Part shown: positions 340-10,231 of the stretch, one piece after another
How positions within the stretch are numbered: the stretch's first letter is position 1
Layout of the letters: each line of letters starts with the position of its first letter
Virus record (IMG/VR): IMGVR_UViG_3300025543_005073
Span: 1 to 33,111 of that record
DNA from: a virus
Length of the DNA: 33,111 nucleotides
Direction: 5' to 3' (one strand)
Position numbers and translations under genes: made by a program
Notes under the pieces: generated by a model
The model's input: only the letters and a program-made list of their open reading frames with translations
What the model was told of the DNA's origin: nothing
The model's database searches: none

Positions 340-1020
340 TCAGTCGCCGATATCCTTTGAGATATGGACCACTTGCCCGACTACTGTGAACTGATGTTGG
401 TCTTCCTGTTTAACATCAACCTTGTCATATAGCTGGTTATCACTAATCAAGCGCCAGGAGCCTAGAACGCTTTGATAGCGTTTCACAAATAGCTCATCAC
501 CATTTCTAAAAATATAGATGTGCCCATCTGCTGGCTTGCATCTACCAATATGAACAACAAGCGTATCGTTATTGTTTATCGTTGGTTCCATGCTATCGCC
601 TTTGGCCCATACGATTGCTAAATCTTTTTCGTTGAATCCTCTGAACTTCAACCACTTGCGCCTGAATGCGAGATGCCTTACTGGCTCTAATTGTTCTGGA
701 TTAAGCGCACCATGTCCTGCGGATACTTGAATCCTATAGCCAGGTATTAACGCGAACTCATCCATGAAGTTAGGCACGATAGGTAAAAATGAATAACGCT
801 GTGGTGCCTCAGATATCCCGCTTATATCGTCACCTAATAAACTTCTCTGTGTGTCAGGTGGTAGCAGGCTGATGTGATATTCAAACGCCTTAGTACCTTT
901 CCGTTTTCTGCAAAGATGCTCTTTCCCGTCAACTAATAACTTTAAATGATCCCTTGTCCATCTATCGGATGTTGGAAAACTTCCATGTCCAGCCAATTCG
1001 GATGCAGTAAACCATGCCAT
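340..1020 (-). CDS. c: Mu-like phage repressor, Mu-type DNA-binding domain plus S24 peptidase
   Basis: Lysogeny repressor of 226 aa. Residues 1-63 form a Mu-type DNA-binding domain strikingly similar to the start of the transposase A encoded here (shared SELAG, SDR, RKR/RKRQGTK and EYHISLLP blocks), as expected if both proteins read the same operators. Residues 100-226 resemble a LexA/S24 peptidase: a VSAGHG segment, catalytic Ser143 in GDSMEP and Lys180 in LFVKRY, 37 residues apart as in LexA. The Mu c protein has no such peptidase. RecA-stimulated autocleavage and SOS induction are inferred from the family. The ATG at 1020 is preceded only by weak GGTG/GGG ribosome-binding sequence. Transcribed leftwards, divergent from ner, across the operator array. 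Confidence 0.93.
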   Translation of the reverse strand: MAWFTASELAGHGSFPTSDRWTRDHLKLLVDGKEHLCRKRKGTKAFEYHISLLPPDTQRSLLGDDISGISEAPQRYSFLPIVPNFMDEFALIPGYRIQVSAGHGALNPEQLEPVRHLAFRRKWLKFRGFNEKDLAIVWAKGDSMEPTINNNDTLVVHIGRCKPADGHIYIFRNGDELFVKRYQSVLGSWRLISDNQLYDKVDVKQEDQHQFTVVGQVVHISKDIGD

Positions 1021-3529: not shown

Positions 3530-3549
3530 CAGCAATAAAAGGAATGAAT

Positions 3550-4494
3550 ATGACCAACGTACACAGCCTAGCGAAGGCCGAAAGCAAGCAAACAGACGTC
3601 ATCATGCGCATCGCTGCATTGATAAACGCAAAGCGTGTTACCTCGGGACAAGTGGCGCAAGAAATCAGCGTTTCCCCGTCTACCTTAAGCCAAGTTTTGA
3701 ACGGTTTATACAAAGCTGATCCGGTCAAAATTGTGGAGAAGTTAGAGAACTGGCTGCGCCTACGTGAACAACGCGACTCAAACCCAAGCACTGACCCTGG
3801 CTTTGTATTAACACCCACCGCCAAGTTGATTATGGACGACCTAACCTATGCCCAAATCACCGAATCTATTGTGGTGATCTACGGTGCATCCGGCGTCGGT
3901 AAAAGTAAAACGCTGGATGAATACCAACGCACTAACAACAACGTCTGGAAAGTCACCGCCAGCCCAAGCCGTTCAAGCCTGACCGAATGCTTATACGAGA
4001 TAGCGATGGAACTGGGCATGGATCAAGCGCCACGCACTAAGGGCCCACTGGCCCGAGTTATCCGCCAGCGCCTTAAAGGCAGCGAGGGCTTACTGATTGT
4101 TGACGAGGCTGACCACCTCGATTACCCCACGCTAGAAGAGCTGCGCATCCTCCAAGAAGAAACAGGCGTGGGCATGGTGCTTGTGGGCAACAACAAGGTT
4201 TATACGCAGCTTACTGGCGGACGCCGTAACGAAGAATTTGCTCGCTTGTTCTCGCGCATTGCTAAGAAGCGCGGCATCCATAAAACCAAAGTTGCTGACG
4301 TTCGTGCCATTGCAGAAGCGTGGCATGTCGGCGGCAGCACTGAAATGAACGTGATGATCCAAATCAGTGAGCGACCAGGTGGCCTGCGTCTACTGACTAA
4401 GACCATCAAGCTTGCCGCCATGTTTGCTAAAGGTGCGGTGATCACAGAGCAATTGCTACGCACAGCACTTGCTGAACTAGAAACCAACGAGTGA
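3550..4494 (+). CDS. B: Mu-type target-capture ATPase B
   Basis: AAA+ ATPase of the MuB family that coats target DNA, brings it to the A transpososome and gives target immunity. 314 aa (MuB is 312). An N-terminal helix-turn-helix lies around residues 30-55 (SGQVAQEISVSPSTLSQVLNG), Walker A GASGVGKS around 112-119, and Walker B LLIVDEAD around 181-188. A helical C-terminal domain ends the protein. An ATG at 3544 is also in frame, but AAAAGGA ends at 3543, directly against it, so 3550 is the better start. The next gene begins 8 nt after the stop. Confidence 0.97.
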   Translation: MTNVHSLAKAESKQTDVIMRIAALINAKRVTSGQVAQEISVSPSTLSQVLNGLYKADPVKIVEKLENWLRLREQRDSNPSTDPGFVLTPTAKLIMDDLTYAQITESIVVIYGASGVGKSKTLDEYQRTNNNVWKVTASPSRSSLTECLYEIAMELGMDQAPRTKGPLARVIRQRLKGSEGLLIVDEADHLDYPTLEELRILQEETGVGMVLVGNNKVYTQLTGGRRNEEFARLFSRIAKKRGIHKTKVADVRAIAEAWHVGGSTEMNVMIQISERPGGLRLLTKTIKLAAMFAKGAVITEQLLRTALAELETNE

Positions 4495-4502
4495 GGTGAG
4501 TG

Positions 4503-4778
4503 ATGGCTACTGTATTAACCGAAAAAATGAAAGCCGCAATCTTTGGTGCAGTCACCATAAGTGGATGTGATTTCAAGTATTCAAGTGCCGTAGAAATAGA
4601 CAACAAACTTAAGCTTTCTCACAGAGTAATGATTAGAGGTGAAGTTACAAAAGGTGAGTGGATATGGGTTGGTCATAGCACAGACGGTATATATGAATTT
4701 GAGTCGGCAGCACAAGCTCGTCTTTTCATTGCAGAAATGAAAGCTGAATTTAAATCAAGAAAGCAAAGCGAGGTATGA
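4503..4778 (+). CDS. Hypothetical early protein, 91 aa
   Basis: Not recognised. It is a small protein with a predicted beta-rich middle (MIRGEVTKGEWIWVGHS) and a C-terminal helix (QARLFIAEMKAEFKSRK). Its base composition is more AT-rich than A and B, suggesting a later acquisition. GAGGTGA at 4493-4499 overlaps the B stop and favours ATG 4503 over the in-frame GTG at 4500. The next gene starts 1 nt after the stop, so both are likely co-translated. In Mu this position carries kil and other host-takeover genes; sequence similarity to those is not evident. Confidence 0.75.
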   Translation: MATVLTEKMKAAIFGAVTISGCDFKYSSAVEIDNKLKLSHRVMIRGEVTKGEWIWVGHSTDGIYEFESAAQARLFIAEMKAEFKSRKQSEV

Positions 4779-4779
4779 C

Positions 4780-4995
4780 ATGGAAACAGTAAACAAGATT
4801 GAAGAGAAAGTGATTGCAGTCATCAAGGGTAAGCCAGTTGAAGCAGACCGCTTTATCACGAATCGCCAAGGTAAAAAGTTTGAGTTTGATCGCGTGGCTG
4901 TCAATACCCGCGGCGGGTTCTGTTTAGACCAAATGCGTGATGACGAAGTCATCGTTAAGCCTGGGCTTATCTACCGTGAAGTAAAGGAGGCATGA
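4780..4995 (+). CDS. Hypothetical early protein, 71 aa
   Basis: No family recognised. A short charged protein (METVNKIEEKVIAVIKGKPV at the start, DDEVIVKPGLIYREV near the end) that reads like a small beta-strand fold. GAGG lies 6-9 nt before the ATG, and the next ORF starts 1 nt after its stop, so it belongs to the compact early operon. No membrane segment or metal-binding cysteine pair is present. Candidates are a nucleic-acid-binding accessory or a host-interaction protein, but nothing in the sequence decides. Confidence 0.72.
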   Translation: METVNKIEEKVIAVIKGKPVEADRFITNRQGKKFEFDRVAVNTRGGFCLDQMRDDEVIVKPGLIYREVKEA

Positions 4996-4996
4996 G

Positions 4997-5317
4997 ATGA
5001 AAACTCAACTCGAAAAACAAGCGCAAGCACTCATCGCTGTTGGTCGTTTAAATCTGCATGGTTGCACAGTGATCAGCATTAACAGTCAGCACTTAACTCC
5101 AGTGATCGACGTAGATAAACCGCCGTTCAAACTGCGTTCAAAAGCGGTTCGCATTACCGAAGTACTGCACGGCATGGTCAATCAAATCTGTGTTGCCAGT
5201 TACAACGGCTGCCTAGTGCGTTGGGTAGATGATGGCATGGAAATACCAGAGCAGATTTGCCAAACCCTTAATCAATATTCACCTGAGTTAATCAGCGTGT
5301 GGCCGAAGAATTTTTAA
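4997..5317 (+). CDS. Hypothetical early protein, 106 aa
   Basis: Not recognised. Residues 1-20 form a helix (LEKQAQALIAVGRLNLHGC), then alternating beta segments with several hydrophobic patches. It starts within the tight 4503-5952 cluster, its RBS (AAAGGAGG at 4983-4990) lying in the end of the previous gene. No catalytic motif seen. It is a conserved-looking small early gene by context only; a DNA-mimic or nuclease-inhibitor role, as for Mu Gam, cannot be supported from sequence. Confidence 0.72.
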   Translation: MKTQLEKQAQALIAVGRLNLHGCTVISINSQHLTPVIDVDKPPFKLRSKAVRITEVLHGMVNQICVASYNGCLVRWVDDGMEIPEQICQTLNQYSPELISVWPKNF

Positions 5318-5331
5318 TAAGGAACTTATAG

Positions 5332-5952
5332 ATGAACACCACTAACCAACCCGCCCCACAGGGCTTCCGCTTAAATGCACTCGGCCATGCTGTACCAGAA
5401 AGCCAAGTGAAAGATATCGACAAACTGCGTGATGAAGTCGTGCTCAAAATCGTCATGGCTGCCAAAGAAATGCAAGGCCACATGGCGACCTATAAAGCGA
5501 CCTCAATGCGAGCAGTGGCAGACTTTATCGACCTCAGTGCCAGCGAATTTGGCGTTAAGTTTGGCGGCACTAAGGGCAATGTCTCGCTGGTGTCATTCGA
5601 TGGTAAATACAAGGTCCAGCGCAGCATAGGCGAGCACCGTATTTTTGATGAACGGATACAAGCGGCCAAGGTGAAAATTGATGAATGCATCAAACGTTGG
5701 TCGGTAGGTTCGAGCGACCAAATCAAAGCGTTGGTGGAGCTTTCATTCAAGGTGAATAAGCAGGGTTATATCGACGTTAACCAAGTGCTGAGCCTGCGCC
5801 AGTTAAACATAGATGATGCTGATTGGCGTGAGGCAATGGATGCCATCGCTGACTCAATCCAAGTGATGGGAAGTACGCCTTACCTGCGCGTTTACGAACG
5901 CCAAGACGATGGCACCTACAAGCAGATTGCGCTCGATATCGCCAAGTTGTAG
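5332..5952 (+). CDS. DUF3164 family phage protein
   Basis: 206 aa, matching the DUF3164 family common in the early region of Mu-like phages: an N-terminal PQGFRLNALGHAVPESQVK segment, a helical DKLRDEVV...MAAKEMQ stretch, a central FGGTKGNVSLVSFDGKYKVQR block and an EAMDAIADSIQVMGS C-terminal region. The biochemical role is unknown. TAAGGA at 5318-5323 precedes the ATG by 8 nt. It is the largest conserved member of the post-B cluster and is followed 2 nt later by the next gene. Confidence 0.88.
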   Translation: MNTTNQPAPQGFRLNALGHAVPESQVKDIDKLRDEVVLKIVMAAKEMQGHMATYKATSMRAVADFIDLSASEFGVKFGGTKGNVSLVSFDGKYKVQRSIGEHRIFDERIQAAKVKIDECIKRWSVGSSDQIKALVELSFKVNKQGYIDVNQVLSLRQLNIDDADWREAMDAIADSIQVMGSTPYLRVYERQDDGTYKQIALDIAKL

Positions 5953-5954
5953 CC

Positions 5955-6233
5955 ATGCAATATCTGCTACTGACCCGCTACGGAGAAGTAACCGTAAGTC
6001 GCCACGCTGTACAAAGGTGGCGACAACGAACGGGCCGCAACTGGCCGCAGATGGTCGAGGCGATAACTACCGCTCACCGACCCACTAAGCAGCAGCTGCG
6101 GCGGATAAGGAAGCGTTCAGGCTGGCAACCAAAACGAATATTGGAATGCGAGTGTGCCTACTTCCTTATCACTAACCACAACATAGTCACCGTGTATGAC
6201 AAGACACGAAGGATTGAAACCGATGATGAATGA
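5955..6233 (+). CDS. Hypothetical basic early protein, 92 aa
   Basis: A strongly basic small protein. SRHAVQRWRQR near residues 14-24 and a second basic helix (TKQQLRRIRKRSGWQPKR) are followed by a beta-strand end (CAYFLITNHNIVTVYD). The RHA..R..R pattern and terminal strands loosely recall small RelE-like or DUF4258-type RNA/DNA-binding proteins, but I cannot assign a family. It overlaps the next gene by 11 nt, indicating translational coupling. Confidence 0.7.
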   Translation: MQYLLLTRYGEVTVSRHAVQRWRQRTGRNWPQMVEAITTAHRPTKQQLRRIRKRSGWQPKRILECECAYFLITNHNIVTVYDKTRRIETDDE

Positions 6234-6486
6234 TCTTAAATGGCTGTTCACCGCGCCCTACAGCAAAGGTGAATTAGAACGTGAAATCGTAATGGCCCAA
6301 GCATTGATCGAAAGCGAACGCGCTGGCACGGCATTCCCTGATTCGACCTTTGAGGATGGTTATATCGCCGCCCTTAACTTTGTACTGGGTAATGAAGGTT
6401 CCAACGTACGCGAAGAATACGAGGCGCTTTGTGCTGAGCATTCAACCACAGATGTGCAGGCTGGTGACTATGAGCAAACGGCATGA
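6223..6486 (+). CDS. Hypothetical early protein, 87 aa
   Basis: Starts at ATG 6223 (MMNDLKWLFTAPYSKGELER); GAAGG at 6208-6212 lies 10 nt upstream. An in-frame ATG at 6196 lies deep in the previous gene without a ribosome-binding site and was not used. Acidic, mainly helical, with GTAFPDSTFEDGYIAALNFVLG in the middle. A similar arrangement is found in small Mu-like early proteins, but no function is known. It overlaps neighbours on both sides by 11 and 17 nt. Confidence 0.7.
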   Translation: MMNDLKWLFTAPYSKGELEREIVMAQALIESERAGTAFPDSTFEDGYIAALNFVLGNEGSNVREEYEALCAEHSTTDVQAGDYEQTA

Positions 6487-6652
6487 GGACATCATCAAAA
6501 ACATCATGGCTTATGGCAGGTTCAAAACCAAAGAACTCGCTGAGGATTGGGCAATAAAAGAGTTTGGTAGCGACTGGCGTACACGCAGTGCAGTAAAGGC
6601 CAAGCGGATCATTATGACAAACCCGCATGAGAAGGAATGGGACGATGAATAG
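6470..6652 (+). CDS. Hypothetical early protein, 60 aa
   Basis: Begins at ATG 6470 (MSKRHEDIIKNIMAYGRFKT) after a GGTG at 6463-6466, and ends at 6652. The frame is open further upstream, but that part is antiphase to the preceding gene and has no ribosome-binding site. A compact, basic helical protein with a probable helix-turn-helix-like layout (KTKELAEDWAIKEFG, then RSAVKAKRI). It overlaps the genes on both sides, as is usual in this operon. Confidence 0.68.
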   Translation: MSKRHEDIIKNIMAYGRFKTKELAEDWAIKEFGSDWRTRSAVKAKRIIMTNPHEKEWDDE

Positions 6653-7316
6653 CAAAATATTAGACAAGATTAAAAAGCTACTAAGACTAGCAACATCAAG
6701 CAATCAACACGAAGCAGCTTTGGCGCTTTCTCGGGCTCAAAAACTAATGCAAGAGCACGGTATTGAAAGTGATGATCCAGCGTTAGCAGGTGTTAAAGAT
6801 GCCACTATTTCAGCGTTGTTTAGAGCAAGGGTGCCAACTCAATACTTATTAATTTTGGCTTACTCGATCGCTAAAGCTTTTGGGTGTGAGTTCTACTTTA
6901 AACCCACATTTAAGAATATGCAGATCGTGTATATCGGCCATAACGAACGCCCAGAAGTAGCTGGTTATGTATTCAATGTTTTAGAACGACAGCTCACCAA
7001 AGCCCGCAAAGAGTTTCTAGACACACTCAGCACCAGAATGAAACGCGCCAATAAAACCAAACGAGCAGATCAGTTTTGTGAGGGTTGGTGTATGGGGGTG
7101 CATAACAAGATTGAACAGTTTGCGCTTACTGAAAAAGAACGAACTGAACTGATCGCTTTTAAAGACAACGTTGACATGGTTAAAGGCGAGGCAAGAGAGG
7201 CTAAAGGCTCTGGCCGTCTCGCTGATGATGCTAAGTACCAAGGCTATAAATCCGCTAAGAACGTGACTTTAAACCATGGCGTTAACGGTCAAGCACAACA
7301 ACGCATTGCATCTTAA
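6645..7316 (+). CDS. DUF2786 family phage protein
   Basis: 223 aa from ATG 6645, with GAAGGAA at 6631-6637. The N-terminus (ILDKIKKLLRLATSSNQHEA then ALSRAQKLMQEHGI) is the signature of DUF2786, found in many Mu-like and other phages. The C-terminal part (YIGHNERPEVAGYVFNVLER and FCEGWCMGVHNKIEQF) also resembles the DUF7168-type extension often attached to it. The function is unknown; its position suggests an early DNA-metabolism or host-interaction role. It ends the first early gene block: a hairpin lies just downstream. Confidence 0.88.
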   Translation: MNSKILDKIKKLLRLATSSNQHEAALALSRAQKLMQEHGIESDDPALAGVKDATISALFRARVPTQYLLILAYSIAKAFGCEFYFKPTFKNMQIVYIGHNERPEVAGYVFNVLERQLTKARKEFLDTLSTRMKRANKTKRADQFCEGWCMGVHNKIEQFALTEKERTELIAFKDNVDMVKGEAREAKGSGRLADDAKYQGYKSAKNVTLNHGVNGQAQQRIAS

Positions 7317-7995: not shown

Positions 7996-8250
7996 ATGTC
8001 AAAAGCAAAATTAGCTGAGTACAACGAGTGGATGATTAAAGCAGAAGATGCAGGTTTTAATCTGTTGGTATTTAAAACCCCATGCTGTGATAAAGACCTA
8101 AAGACTATTGCGCCATCTGATAAAGGTTCTATGTGGGATTCGTTTGCTGTCTGCCCCCATTGTTCACAACCGTTTTTAAAAGAAGTCTACGTTGATCGTG
8201 TGGTAGTACAGCGCCTTGATCATCCATCAACCAACTTGAAAACAGCTTAG
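7996..8250 (+). CDS. Small cysteine-rich protein, 84 aa
   Basis: Contains CC at about residues 30-31 and CPHC at about 53-56, consistent with a rudimentary zinc ribbon, followed by a beta-rich VYVDRVVVQRL segment. AGGAGA at 7986-7991 precedes the ATG. No family recognised. It sits directly behind another zinc-ribbon gene, and the two may act together, for example on RNA polymerase or a host nucleic-acid enzyme; that is inference from context. Confidence 0.72.
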   Translation: MSKAKLAEYNEWMIKAEDAGFNLLVFKTPCCDKDLKTIAPSDKGSMWDSFAVCPHCSQPFLKEVYVDRVVVQRLDHPSTNLKTA

Positions 8251-8260
8251 GGTGGTCAAA

Positions 8261-8725
8261 ATGGATAAGTTGAAAATGATAAGTGATATAAAAAAACTAC
8301 AATCTCTATTTGATGAAAATCAAGCTGAACTAAAATCTCAAATTGAACTTTTACGTGATGCTTTGGGTGCACTCTATGATATAGCGAATAAACATACAGG
8401 TGAACTTGCATCACAAGTTGCAAAAATCAGTGATGATGCATTGCTAAAAACTGGTTATGAGTCGTTGTTAGATGTTAAAAAACGCTGTGTGATTGAGGTA
8501 TTGCCAGACATAAAGAAAAGACCAAGGCAGAATTGGACAAATTACCAATGGGCTGAGCATGTAGGTGGTCGTTATCAGGGTGGTAATCCACGCAATTATT
8601 ATGAATTTGGTTCTATGTTTGCTGTGGGTGAATTGATTAAACAAGTTCATATTGATGGTCAGAAGTCTGGTTGGAATCAATGCATATCAGAAATATCAAA
8701 GGCGGCAGGAGTTAGTGATGTCTAA
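8261..8725 (+). CDS. Hypothetical protein with N-terminal coiled coil, 154 aa
   Basis: Residues 1-60 are heptad-like (IKKLQSLFDENQAELKSQIE then LLRDALGALYDIANK), followed by a globular part with GGRYQGGNPRNYYEFGSMFAVG. Not recognised. AT-rich relative to its neighbours, suggesting separate acquisition. GGTGG at 8251-8255 supports ATG 8261 over the in-frame GTG at 8252. Its last 8 nt overlap gemA, and it carries gemA's AGGAG within its own coding sequence, so the two are coupled. Confidence 0.72.
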   Translation: MDKLKMISDIKKLQSLFDENQAELKSQIELLRDALGALYDIANKHTGELASQVAKISDDALLKTGYESLLDVKKRCVIEVLPDIKKRPRQNWTNYQWAEHVGGRYQGGNPRNYYEFGSMFAVGELIKQVHIDGQKSGWNQCISEISKAAGVSDV

Positions 8726-9257
8726 CGCCCTTAAGCTGGTGCAAATAGGTAAACGTGATCTGCAACTTGATGATGCTATGTACCGCGATTTGTTAGAACA
8801 GATCACAGGCGAACGCAGTGCCAAGGGACTGAGTGAAACCCAACTCAATGCCGTCGTGGCCGCAATGAAGTTGCGCGGCTTTAAGCCAAAGCCTAAGCCT
8901 CAACCACAGGCGGCGGAGGTGCCGAAGATCCACGCTATCTGGCTAACCATGTATGACCAAGGCTTTGTGCGTAGTCGAACCGAAGTCGCGCTTAATACCT
9001 ACGTTAAGCGCATGACTAAAACCAGCAACGGCCAAGGCATTGACCGCATTGAATGGTTAAAGTCAGCACAAGCTGTGATGGTATTAGAGGCGTTAAAGAA
9101 GTGGCATTGGCGCTGTATGTCTGATGCAATTATCGCCCGTGGTAGCCGTGTTCCGCTCAATGATAAATTGACTGACAAGGCAGGCTATGAAAAGTTGGCC
9201 GCACACTATGAAGAGTTTTACATTAAGCGCAAACCAGACCAAAACCCAATCCCATGA
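8718..9257 (+). CDS. gemA: GemA regulatory protein (Mu gp16-like, DUF1018)
   Basis: 179 aa, GemA/DUF1018 family: an N-terminal KLVQIGKRDLQLDDAMYRDL segment, ITGERSAKGLSETQLNAVV, then the conserved IHAIWLTMYDQGFVRSRTE and WLKSAQAVMVLEALKKW blocks. In Mu this late-early protein alters host gene expression, with reported effects on DNA supercoiling. It starts at ATG 8718 behind AGGAG 8707-8711; the longer open frame upstream lacks a ribosome-binding site and lies over the previous gene. A hairpin overlaps its stop, and a terminator follows before mor. Confidence 0.93.
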   Translation: MSNALKLVQIGKRDLQLDDAMYRDLLEQITGERSAKGLSETQLNAVVAAMKLRGFKPKPKPQPQAAEVPKIHAIWLTMYDQGFVRSRTEVALNTYVKRMTKTSNGQGIDRIEWLKSAQAVMVLEALKKWHWRCMSDAIIARGSRVPLNDKLTDKAGYEKLAAHYEEFYIKRKPDQNPIP

Positions 9258-9765: not shown

Positions 9766-9775
9766 GGGAATGATG

Positions 9776-10231
9776 ATGAAAAAGTTACTGTGTTTAGTAG
9801 CGTGTGTTTTACCGCTATTTGTTTCTGCTAAAGAGCTTCCACCACAGGAAGATATAATGGCGAGACTAGACCAGTCTGGCATGACTAAAAGCAATCAATG
9901 GAAAAGTATCGGCAATGGTTTTCAACAGGATGTGAAAGGCGGTATTTTGTTTGTGTCTGCTGGTAGCGTGTCATCTATGATGACCATTTCAAATAATGAA
10001 GATGAGATACAAGATTCATTTGCTTACGCAGGTATGCATTGTGCGGCATCATCTATTATTTCAATTGATATGCAACAAAACAAAACCCTATTAAATAATA
10101 TGCTGTTAAGTTTTTCTGATACTCTAAAATCCTATCAGAACAAAAATACCACTATGGTGTGGGGTTATAACTTTGACACTGAATTAATAAAAACAGAGAA
10201 AGGAATAATTGCAAACTGTACATTAAAGTAA
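9776..10231 (+). CDS. Exported protein of unknown function (candidate moron), 151 aa
   Basis: Begins with a clear Sec signal peptide: KK, the hydrophobic LLCLVACVLPLFV and a VSA cleavage site around residue 18, giving a periplasmic protein of about 133 aa. Two cysteines in the mature part (AGMHCAAS and IIANCTLK) could form a disulphide. AT-rich compared with mor and the endolysin. Of three tandem ATGs, 9776 is best placed behind AAGGGA (9764-9769). It lies between mor and a strong terminator, outside the conserved virion order, as expected for an acquired cargo gene such as a superinfection-exclusion factor. No family is recognised. Confidence 0.8.
   Translation: MKKLLCLVACVLPLFVSAKELPPQEDIMARLDQSGMTKSNQWKSIGNGFQQDVKGGILFVSAGSVSSMMTISNNEDEIQDSFAYAGMHCAASSIISIDMQQNKTLLNNMLLSFSDTLKSYQNKNTTMVWGYNFDTELIKTEKGIIANCTLK

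What the first reader, a model, noticed from the sequence alone, without database searches (positions are those of the whole stretch)
4503..6652. Cluster of small overlapping orphan genes after B, without a recognisable Gam
Seven tightly spaced early genes, mostly under 110 aa, sit where Mu keeps kil, gam and related host-takeover genes. None but DUF3164 is recognised. Such clusters are a good hunting ground for anti-restriction, nuclease-inhibitor or host-shutoff factors.
Basis: inference. Interest (0 to 1): 0.5.

Follow-up and report, generated by a model that had tools for sequence, protein, structure and literature searches.

The report
Likely Gam stand-in in Mu-like phages
The small-gene cluster behind the transposition genes of this Mu-like phage contains a relative of Mu's cell-shape toxin Kil and an uncharacterised protein, DUF3164, that in related phages takes the place of the DNA-end protector Gam and was not found together with it, so it probably does Gam's job by other means.

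Summary
The seven tight plus-strand ORFs are real and lie between B and GemA/Mor of a Mu-like phage (nearest named relative: Shewanella phage MuM16-2). Gam (PF07352) was not found. The claim that only DUF3164 is recognisable is wrong: ORF 4997-5317 is Mu Kil by profile (E 2.7e-16 against 167 Mu frames). ORFs 5-7 are conserved phage families of unknown function, ORF 2 is rarer, and ORF 1 is an orphan.

The main result concerns DUF3164 (5332-5952). It and Gam alternate. Of 130 MuA-selected loci, 114 have DUF3164 only, 11 Gam only, 0 both and 5 neither; on inspection none of the five is a clear case of a complete early region lacking both. A MuA tree needs at least 9 switches. Near-identical phages differ at this gene: JBD30 (Gam plus gp14) against Ab30 (DUF3164 alone), with flanks 98.4% and 96.6% identical. 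Further swaps are L128/L331 and, as a larger cassette, H72/H71. Sequence profiles show no homology to Gam; the fold comparison is uninformative.

Best reading: DUF3164 is a non-homologous counterpart of Gam, protecting linear phage DNA from RecBCD-type nucleases. Interchangeability is well supported. The biochemistry is inferred and testable, since JBD30 Gam is reported to license Gabija defence.

The parts
3544..4494 (+). MuB-like target-capture ATPase; upstream anchor of the cluster
   Evidence: homologous block to MuM16-2, whose gene is annotated DNA transposition protein; MuB profile family
4503..4778 (+). ORF 1, 91 aa, orphan, GC 39%; single-gene insertion between B and ORF 2
   Evidence: no match in phages, in 331 loci except copies of the window or in seven relatives
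4780..4995 (+). ORF 2, 71 aa, small conserved protein of unknown function
   Evidence: 31 loci; dN<dS
4997..5317 (+). ORF 3, 106 aa: Kil, homologue of Mu Kil with a C-terminal extension of about 30 aa
   Evidence: PHROG 6381/2743; profile of its relatives hits Mu Kil E 2.7e-16, hhalign 98.2%; blastp 15 of 42 identical
5332..5952 (+). ORF 4, 206 aa: DUF3164 (PF11363), proposed counterpart of Mu Gam
   Evidence: Pfam E 2.9e-84; alternates with Gam
5955..6233 (+). ORF 5, 92 aa, very basic (pI 10.4), with motifs RHA..RW.QRT and IVTVY invariant in 8 aligned relatives; function unknown
   Evidence: PHROG 6182 E 8.8e-32; 83 loci; alignment A5; pI
6223..6486 (+). ORF 6, 87 aa, acidic (pI 4.1); function unknown; start could also be 6196
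   Evidence: PHROG 6680 E 1.9e-34; pI; longer frame
6470..6652 (+). ORF 7, 60 aa; function unknown
   Evidence: PHROG 6594 E 1.3e-15
6645..7316 (+). DUF2786 + DUF7168 protein, 223 aa; overlaps ORF 7; variable accessory gene
   Evidence: Pfam; not found in five of seven close relatives
7996..8250 (+). 84-aa protein with a zinc-ribbon-like cysteine pattern, similar to Mu gp6 (E5)
   Evidence: blastp 32% over 65 aa, single-comparison E 6e-10
8718..9257 (+). GemA; downstream anchor of the early region
   Evidence: Pfam GemA E 2.1e-33

Best explanation
The cluster is the semi-essential early region of a Mu-like phage. Two of its genes have roles that can be named. ORF 3 is Kil (shown by homology), expected to disturb host cell shape or division early in the lytic cycle (inferred from Mu Kil). 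ORF 4, DUF3164, is the counterpart of Mu Gam. Transposable phages carry one or the other in the same part of the early operon and switch between them by gene or cassette replacement (shown). The simplest account is that both meet the same need (inferred): during infection the linear phage DNA must be kept from RecBCD/AddAB-type nucleases. I propose that DUF3164 binds DNA ends or the nuclease itself and keeps it off the DNA (inferred). Its long N-terminal helix, residues 28-72 in the model, may serve for dimerising (inferred). The remaining small ORFs are accessory early genes at gene junctions around these two, ORF 1 being one such insertion.
For: Kil; iterated profiles started from window ORF 3 and from Mu Kil end with 269 shared ORFs (270 and 269 in all).
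Mutual exclusion: Gam (PF07352) in 0 of 50 records with DUF3164 (50 of 75 loci given) and 0 of 50 further MuA-selected DUF3164 records; DUF3164 (PF11363) in 0 of 50 records with Gam (50 of 80 loci given). Nothing rang in those three calls; the same two families do ring. MuA-selected sample, 130 of 146 loci with at least 6.5 kb downstream: 114 DUF3164 only, 11 Gam only, 0 both, 5 neither; the 16 shorter loci: 7 DUF3164, 0 Gam, 9 neither. Of the five: L209 holds a divergent Gam (PF07352 E 3.8e-9); L234 has DUF3164 on the opposite strand in a rearranged segment, L235 runs into unknown bases inside B, and L252 and L253 match only about 100-120 residues of MuA.
Repeated switching: 10 changes on a MuA tree of 83 representatives of 203 loci, 9 forced by starred branches; 9 and 9 on a mixture-model tree of 77 rows without the longest branches.
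Same slot: JBD30 against Ab30, 98.4% identical up to the start of gam/DUF3164 (7597/7629) and 96.6% from 8316/8241, 718 against 611 bases exchanged. DMS3 against Ab30 likewise. L128 against L331, MuA 99.4% identical: an 84-aa ORF plus Gam against DUF3164 alone; 97.2% identical upstream, downstream 72% over 159 bases and then 96.0%. H72 (Gam) against H71 (DUF3164), flanks 98.3% and 97.8%, a larger cassette.
Specificity: of 231 pairs of early gene families in 80 representative loci, DUF3164/Gam ranks first for complementarity, 0 both, 78 of 80 covered.
Role of Gam: JBD30 gp13 is a Gam homologue; Mu Gam dimerises, binds DNA ends and blocks RecBCD loading (PMC12407980, section 10 read).
Against: No biochemical or genetic result on DUF3164 was found in the passages and searches made. 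No sequence homology to Gam: hhalign probability 0.3%. No PDB match of the DUF3164 model at E<=0.001. Gam's own model was poor (pTM 0.36), and the known Gam structure 2p2u, which its sequence does find, is not in that model's list, so folds could not be compared. DUF3164 was detected in virions of marine phages by mass spectrometry (PMC5488378, section 14), which is not required by the model, though an injected end-binder would fit. Mutual exclusion can arise from slot replacement without shared function. In L128/L331, JBD30/Ab30 and H72/H71 the exchanged segment holds at least one gene besides Gam, so the replaced unit may be Gam plus a partner. DMS3 is reported not to exclude RecBCD efficiently (PMC12407980, passage) although it has Gam.
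Confidence: 0.62

Rival explanations
1. Modular exchange without shared function: a recombination hot spot in the early operon swaps cassettes, and DUF3164 and Gam merely sit at the same spot while doing different, dispensable things.
For: Early regions are mosaic; other genes come and go at neighbouring junctions. H71/H72 exchange a 2.5-2.9 kb stretch, not one gene.
Against: No clear case of a complete early region with neither gene remains after inspection, and no other pair among 231 is as complementary. The exchanged segment of Ab30 holds DUF3164 alone.
Confidence: 0.2
2. DUF3164 is Gam itself, diverged beyond sequence recognition: the same Ku-like end-binding fold and an ancient common ancestor.
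For: Similar order of elements in both models: long N-terminal helix (28-72 against 20-79), hairpin, helix, C-terminal strand. A Gam-like protein of phage F8 shares only 14.3% identity with JBD30 Gam (PMC12407980).
Against: Profile comparison gives 0.3%; PHROG keeps them as separate families 846 and 491; the few fold-search targets shared by the two models are below significance.
Confidence: 0.2
3. DUF3164 serves transposition or replication (for instance remodelling of transposition ends) and replaces Gam in a role other than nuclease protection.
For: It sits in the operon of A and B, downstream of Kil in all 112 MuA-selected loci in which both were found.
Against: Gam's described role is end protection; no transposition role for Gam was met in the passages and sections read.
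Confidence: 0.12

Closest known systems
Mu Gam (PF07352, PHROG 491 'Mu Gam-like end protection')
   Same: Same place in the early operon; alternates with DUF3164 in near-identical phages; similar length (174 against 206 aa); long N-terminal helix in both models
   Different: No sequence or profile similarity; DUF3164 replaces Gam plus a small neighbour in JBD30 and L128; end binding not shown for DUF3164
DUF3164 family (PF11363, PHROG 846)
   Same: The window protein is a plain member (E 2.9e-84); relatives by tblastn in 105 of 50,697 phage records
   Different: No difference seen; the family has no assigned function in Pfam or PHROG
Mu Kil (PHROG 2743/6381)
   Same: ORF 3 is homologous over about 65 residues and lies downstream of B
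   Different: About 30 extra C-terminal residues; separated from B by two small ORFs. PMC3961180 (passage) reports spherical cells for Mu kil and no similarity to lambda or Rac kil
Shewanella phage vB_SspM_MuM16-2 early region
   Same: ORFs 2-7 and DUF2786 in the same order; 91.4% DNA identity over 76% of the first 12 kb
   Different: Lacks ORF 1; has other small genes before and after Kil (p06, p08)

Membership tests
Mu Kil | Sequence-profile match to Mu Kil | tested here: met
   Profile without any sequence from Gam loci hits Mu Kil alone among 167 Mu frames, E 2.7e-16; hhalign 98.2%
Mu Kil | Early gene shortly downstream of B | tested here: met
   a Kil match lies behind MuA in 116 of 130 MuA-selected loci
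Mu Kil | Expression makes host cells spherical / kills | not testable with these tools
   Spherical cells reported for Mu kil in PMC3961180 (passage)
DUF3164 (PF11363) | Match above the family cut-off | tested here: met
   282 bits against cut-off 23.7
Mu Gam (PF07352) | Match above the family cut-off | tested here: not met
   No match in the window at E<=1; hhalign 0.3%
Mu Gam (PF07352) | Gam fold (2p2u; Ku-like) | tested here: inconclusive
   No significant PDB match for DUF3164; Gam's own model did not recover 2p2u either
Mu Gam (PF07352) | Position in the early operon after Kil | tested here: met
   Median 472 (DUF3164, 112 loci) and 758 (Gam, 11 loci) bases from Kil frame start to frame start; swaps
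Mu Gam (PF07352) | Binds dsDNA ends and blocks RecBCD | not testable with these tools
   Needs purified protein or plating assays

The most novel reading that the evidence does not exclude
DUF3164 is a second, unrelated DNA-end or RecBCD antagonist of transposable phages, and the recurrent Gam-DUF3164 exchange is driven by defence systems such as Gabija that sense Gam: switching the antagonist keeps the phage's DNA protected while removing the alarm.
Probability: 0.25. Interest if true: 0.78.

Novelty: new variant of a known kind. Interest (0 to 1): 0.6.

Why it matters
DUF3164 is widespread (105 of 50,697 phage records) and has no assigned function; only two papers in the searched library contain the name. 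A 2021 study of transposable prophages wrote that whether genes such as Gam are truly absent from some genomes or merely unrecognised 'is impossible to conclude' (PMC8705779, section 21). The natural swaps make that testable with existing P. aeruginosa phages whose early regions differ little apart from this gene. It also bears on a current question: JBD30 Gam is one of the proteins reported to license Gabija defence (PMC12407980), so a replacement might evade it.

Tried and rejected
Homology of DUF3164 to Gam: hhalign with 62 against about 60 sequences and with a wider set, both negative. Fold search of DUF3164 in PDB: nothing at E<=0.001, best VIA Z 4.8. BFVD: the only row at E<=0.001 is a 79-aa protein with 51% identity; the next three are unnamed or uncharacterised phage proteins at E about 0.002 with TM-scores of 0.33-0.43, and the best-superposing other row in the list (A0A8S5LCU2, 124 aa, TM 0.57 by target, E 0.018) is uncharacterised too, so none helps. 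Gam's model was too poor to serve as a yardstick; 2p2u is not in its list.

A broad host-genome sample (369 genomes of one class): 8 genomes with Gam, 10 with DUF3164, no genome in both lists. With about 0.2 shared genomes expected by chance this says nothing about exclusion.

ORF 5 as a RelE/BrnT-like toxin was my recalled impression from its motifs; a profile search of PDB sequences found nothing (best E 0.54), so it is not claimed. PADLOC: no match for ORFs 1-7 or DUF2786. A weak match of the 8252-8725 ORF to a reverse-transcriptase model (E 0.003, 14 bits) was dropped as chance.

My own Gam profile is narrow and missed the divergent Gam of L209 (found by Pfam). PF07352 itself was run on 50 of the 114 DUF3164-only loci and on 50 DUF3164-selected records; for the others the narrow profile is the only test.

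Rows dropped: 16 of 146 loci with under 6.5 kb downstream (7 with DUF3164, 0 Gam, 9 neither); in the tree, loci with under 480 matched MuA residues, loci with under 5.5 kb downstream and neither gene, and near-copies (over 88% identical with the same state), so 'neither' is under-counted there. One search left out six further rows. In one search my script's GemA coordinates were one base off; that translation was not used.

Lower-identity pairs on either side of a switch (L119/L032, L127/L031, L243/L246) were also aligned: flanks align at 65-80%, the Gam/DUF3164 stretch does not. They support the slot but give no sharp boundary.

Phage names carrying both genes: none seen by eye in the rows shown against 69 and 117; not all of the 105 and 132 records were listed.

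Literature: passages on Gam were sought in PMC4378225, PMC5977238, PMC4482731 and PMC2628397; no occurrence of the word. PMC7761591 (passages) reports DUF3164 near a DDE transposase and ATPase in Bacteroidetes prophages. 'PF11363' found one unrelated paper. PMC8705779 speaks of a gam gene in B3 (passage), but PF07352 finds none in the B3 record, where B3ORF6 is DUF3164; those authors may already have grouped the two, which I could not check. I saw no statement of the swap in the listings of searches or in the passages and sections opened. That covers this library only, and most listed papers were not opened.
Full report
What is there. The window is a Mu-like phage: repressor, Ner, A, B, then the cluster, then DUF2786, a PapB-like regulator (below Pfam's cut-off; PHROG 10566, a regulator family, E 5.4e-35), two proteins with zinc-ribbon-like cysteine patterns, GemA and Mor (repressor, Ner and Mor by resemblance and by MuM16-2's annotation). 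Its nearest named relative is Shewanella phage MuM16-2, 91.4% identical over 76% of the first 12 kb. The seven ORFs of the finding are confirmed, with gaps of 1-14 bases or short overlaps. ORFs 2-7 have relatives and show dN below dS where both could be computed. ORF 1 has none and is a single-gene insertion: MuM16-2 lacks it, and instead has small genes between ORF 2 and Kil and between Kil and DUF3164.

Kil. ORF 3 matches two PHROG families named Kil. To test membership I built a profile from its 50 unique relatives outside loci that carry Gam. Against 167 frames of Mu's first 11 kb it hits only Mu Kil, E 2.7e-16, and hhalign gives 98.2%. Iterated profiles started from ORF 3 and from Mu Kil end with 269 shared ORFs. 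The RefSeq record of Vibrio phage martha 12B12 names the equivalent gene Kil.

Gam and DUF3164. PF07352 finds no Gam in the window or in six relatives that have DUF3164, while Mu and SfMu have Gam and no DUF3164. I then asked whether this is general. Of 75 loci fetched with DUF3164, 50 records were searched and none has Gam. Of 80 loci fetched with Gam, 50 records were searched and none has DUF3164. To avoid choosing by either gene, I fetched loci by the transposase MuA (66 from genomes, 80 from viral contigs). Of these 146, 130 hold at least 6.5 kb downstream: 114 have DUF3164 only, 11 Gam only, none both, 5 neither. The five were read one by one. L209 has a divergent Gam. L234 has its DUF3164 on the opposite strand in a rearranged segment. 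L235 runs into unknown bases inside B. L252 and L253 match only about 100-120 residues of MuA. Fifty of the 114 were searched again with PF07352: none has Gam. Searches had no positive of their own; the same families ring. Among the 356 loci held plus the window, 238 hold DUF3164, 106 hold Gam, none both (many are overlapping copies of one contig).

Independence. On a MuA tree of 83 representatives the two states change 10 times, 9 of them forced by well supported branches. Without the longest branches and with a mixture model it is 9 and 9. This is fewer than with shuffled labels (means 14.0 and 12.2), so the state is mostly inherited and switches now and then. The trees are quick ones with SH-aLRT support only, and part of the rows had been fetched because they carry one of the genes, so the count of switches is not a rate.

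Swaps. Pseudomonas phages JBD30 and Ab30 are 98.4% identical up to the start of gene 13 and 96.6% identical from the last bases of the exchanged unit. JBD30 has Gam plus a 67-aa gene in between (718 bases), Ab30 has DUF3164 alone (611 bases). DMS3 against Ab30 shows the same, and CF28a carries the DUF3164 form. In the Mu clade, contigs L128 and L331 (MuA 99.4% identical) exchange an 84-aa ORF plus Gam for DUF3164. They are 97.2% identical upstream; downstream they align at 72% over 159 bases and then at 96.0%. In B3-like phages, H72 has Gam and H71 DUF3164 within a larger exchanged stretch, flanks 98.3% and 97.8%.

Control for the pattern. ORFs of 80 representative early regions were clustered into families. 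Among 231 pairs of families present in at least 8 loci, DUF3164/Gam is the most complementary, with no co-occurrence and 78 of 80 loci covered. The pairs ranked next pair a near-universal family (MuB, or an unlabelled 184-aa family) with a rare one. The measure was chosen after the pattern had been seen.

What DUF3164 is like. AlphaFold2 gives a model with pLDDT 86.8 and pTM 0.60, with a 45-residue helix, a hairpin and a C-terminal alpha/beta part. No PDB match is significant. Twenty positions are invariant in 34 sequences, several in the motif GGxKGN...SFDGKYKVQ. Sequence profiles do not relate it to Gam.

Interpretation. The two genes are interchangeable in evolution, and no clear case of a complete early region lacking both was found. 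The economical account is a shared task. Gam's described task is to dimerise at DNA ends and block RecBCD loading (PMC12407980, section 10, which also calls it homologous to Ku). Whether DUF3164 binds ends, binds the nuclease or does something else is not shown. JBD30 Gam licenses Gabija defence in that preprint (abstract, sections 10 and 12 and passages seen; Ab30 and LPB1 do not occur in it). A link between Gabija and the swap is my speculation.

Prior knowledge. Two papers in the library contain 'DUF3164'. One notes that two roseophages lack Gam and, separately, that DUF3164 is frequent and was detected in virions (PMC5488378). It does not connect the two in the passages read. PMC8705779 (passages, sections 12 and 21) treats Gam as formerly universal and speaks of gam in B3, whose record has DUF3164 and no PF07352 match, so a tacit grouping may exist.

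Other ORFs. ORF 5 is a basic protein with conserved motifs, found in 83 loci. Its family, lumped by my clustering with ORF 6, occurred in 23 of 64 DUF3164 loci and 0 of 14 Gam loci. That may reflect relatedness. ORFs 6 and 7 are phage families without function. No defence-library model matched ORFs 1-7.

Noticed in passing
L209:14856-15398: A divergent Gam (PF07352 E 3.8e-9, PHROG 491) in a Mu-like element that at first looked as if it had neither gene.
   Followed up: yes
L332:7597-7878 and L334:8118-8321: Small genes directly behind Gam in DMS3 and JBD30 are exchanged together with Gam for DUF3164; PHROG 18351 is matched by Mu Gam at its front and by DMS3-12 at its back, which suggests a Gam partner or domain.
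   Followed up: partly
window 7996-8250: Similar to Mu gp6 (E5), in Mu directly behind Kil, here about 2.7 kb downstream of Kil.
   Followed up: partly
window 340-1020 (-): Repressor whose N-terminus resembles the N-terminus of this phage's MuA, followed by what looks like an S24 peptidase part (by eye).
   Followed up: no
window 9770-10231: ORF with an apparent signal peptide just behind Mor; possible periplasmic accessory protein (by eye).
   Followed up: no
window 6645-7316: DUF2786+DUF7168 protein of unknown function, variable between close relatives (found in two of seven compared).
   Followed up: partly
L234:6868-8850 (-): Photorhabdus prophage with a segment holding the end of A, B and DUF3164 on the opposite strand to the start of A: an inversion or assembly error.
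   Followed up: no
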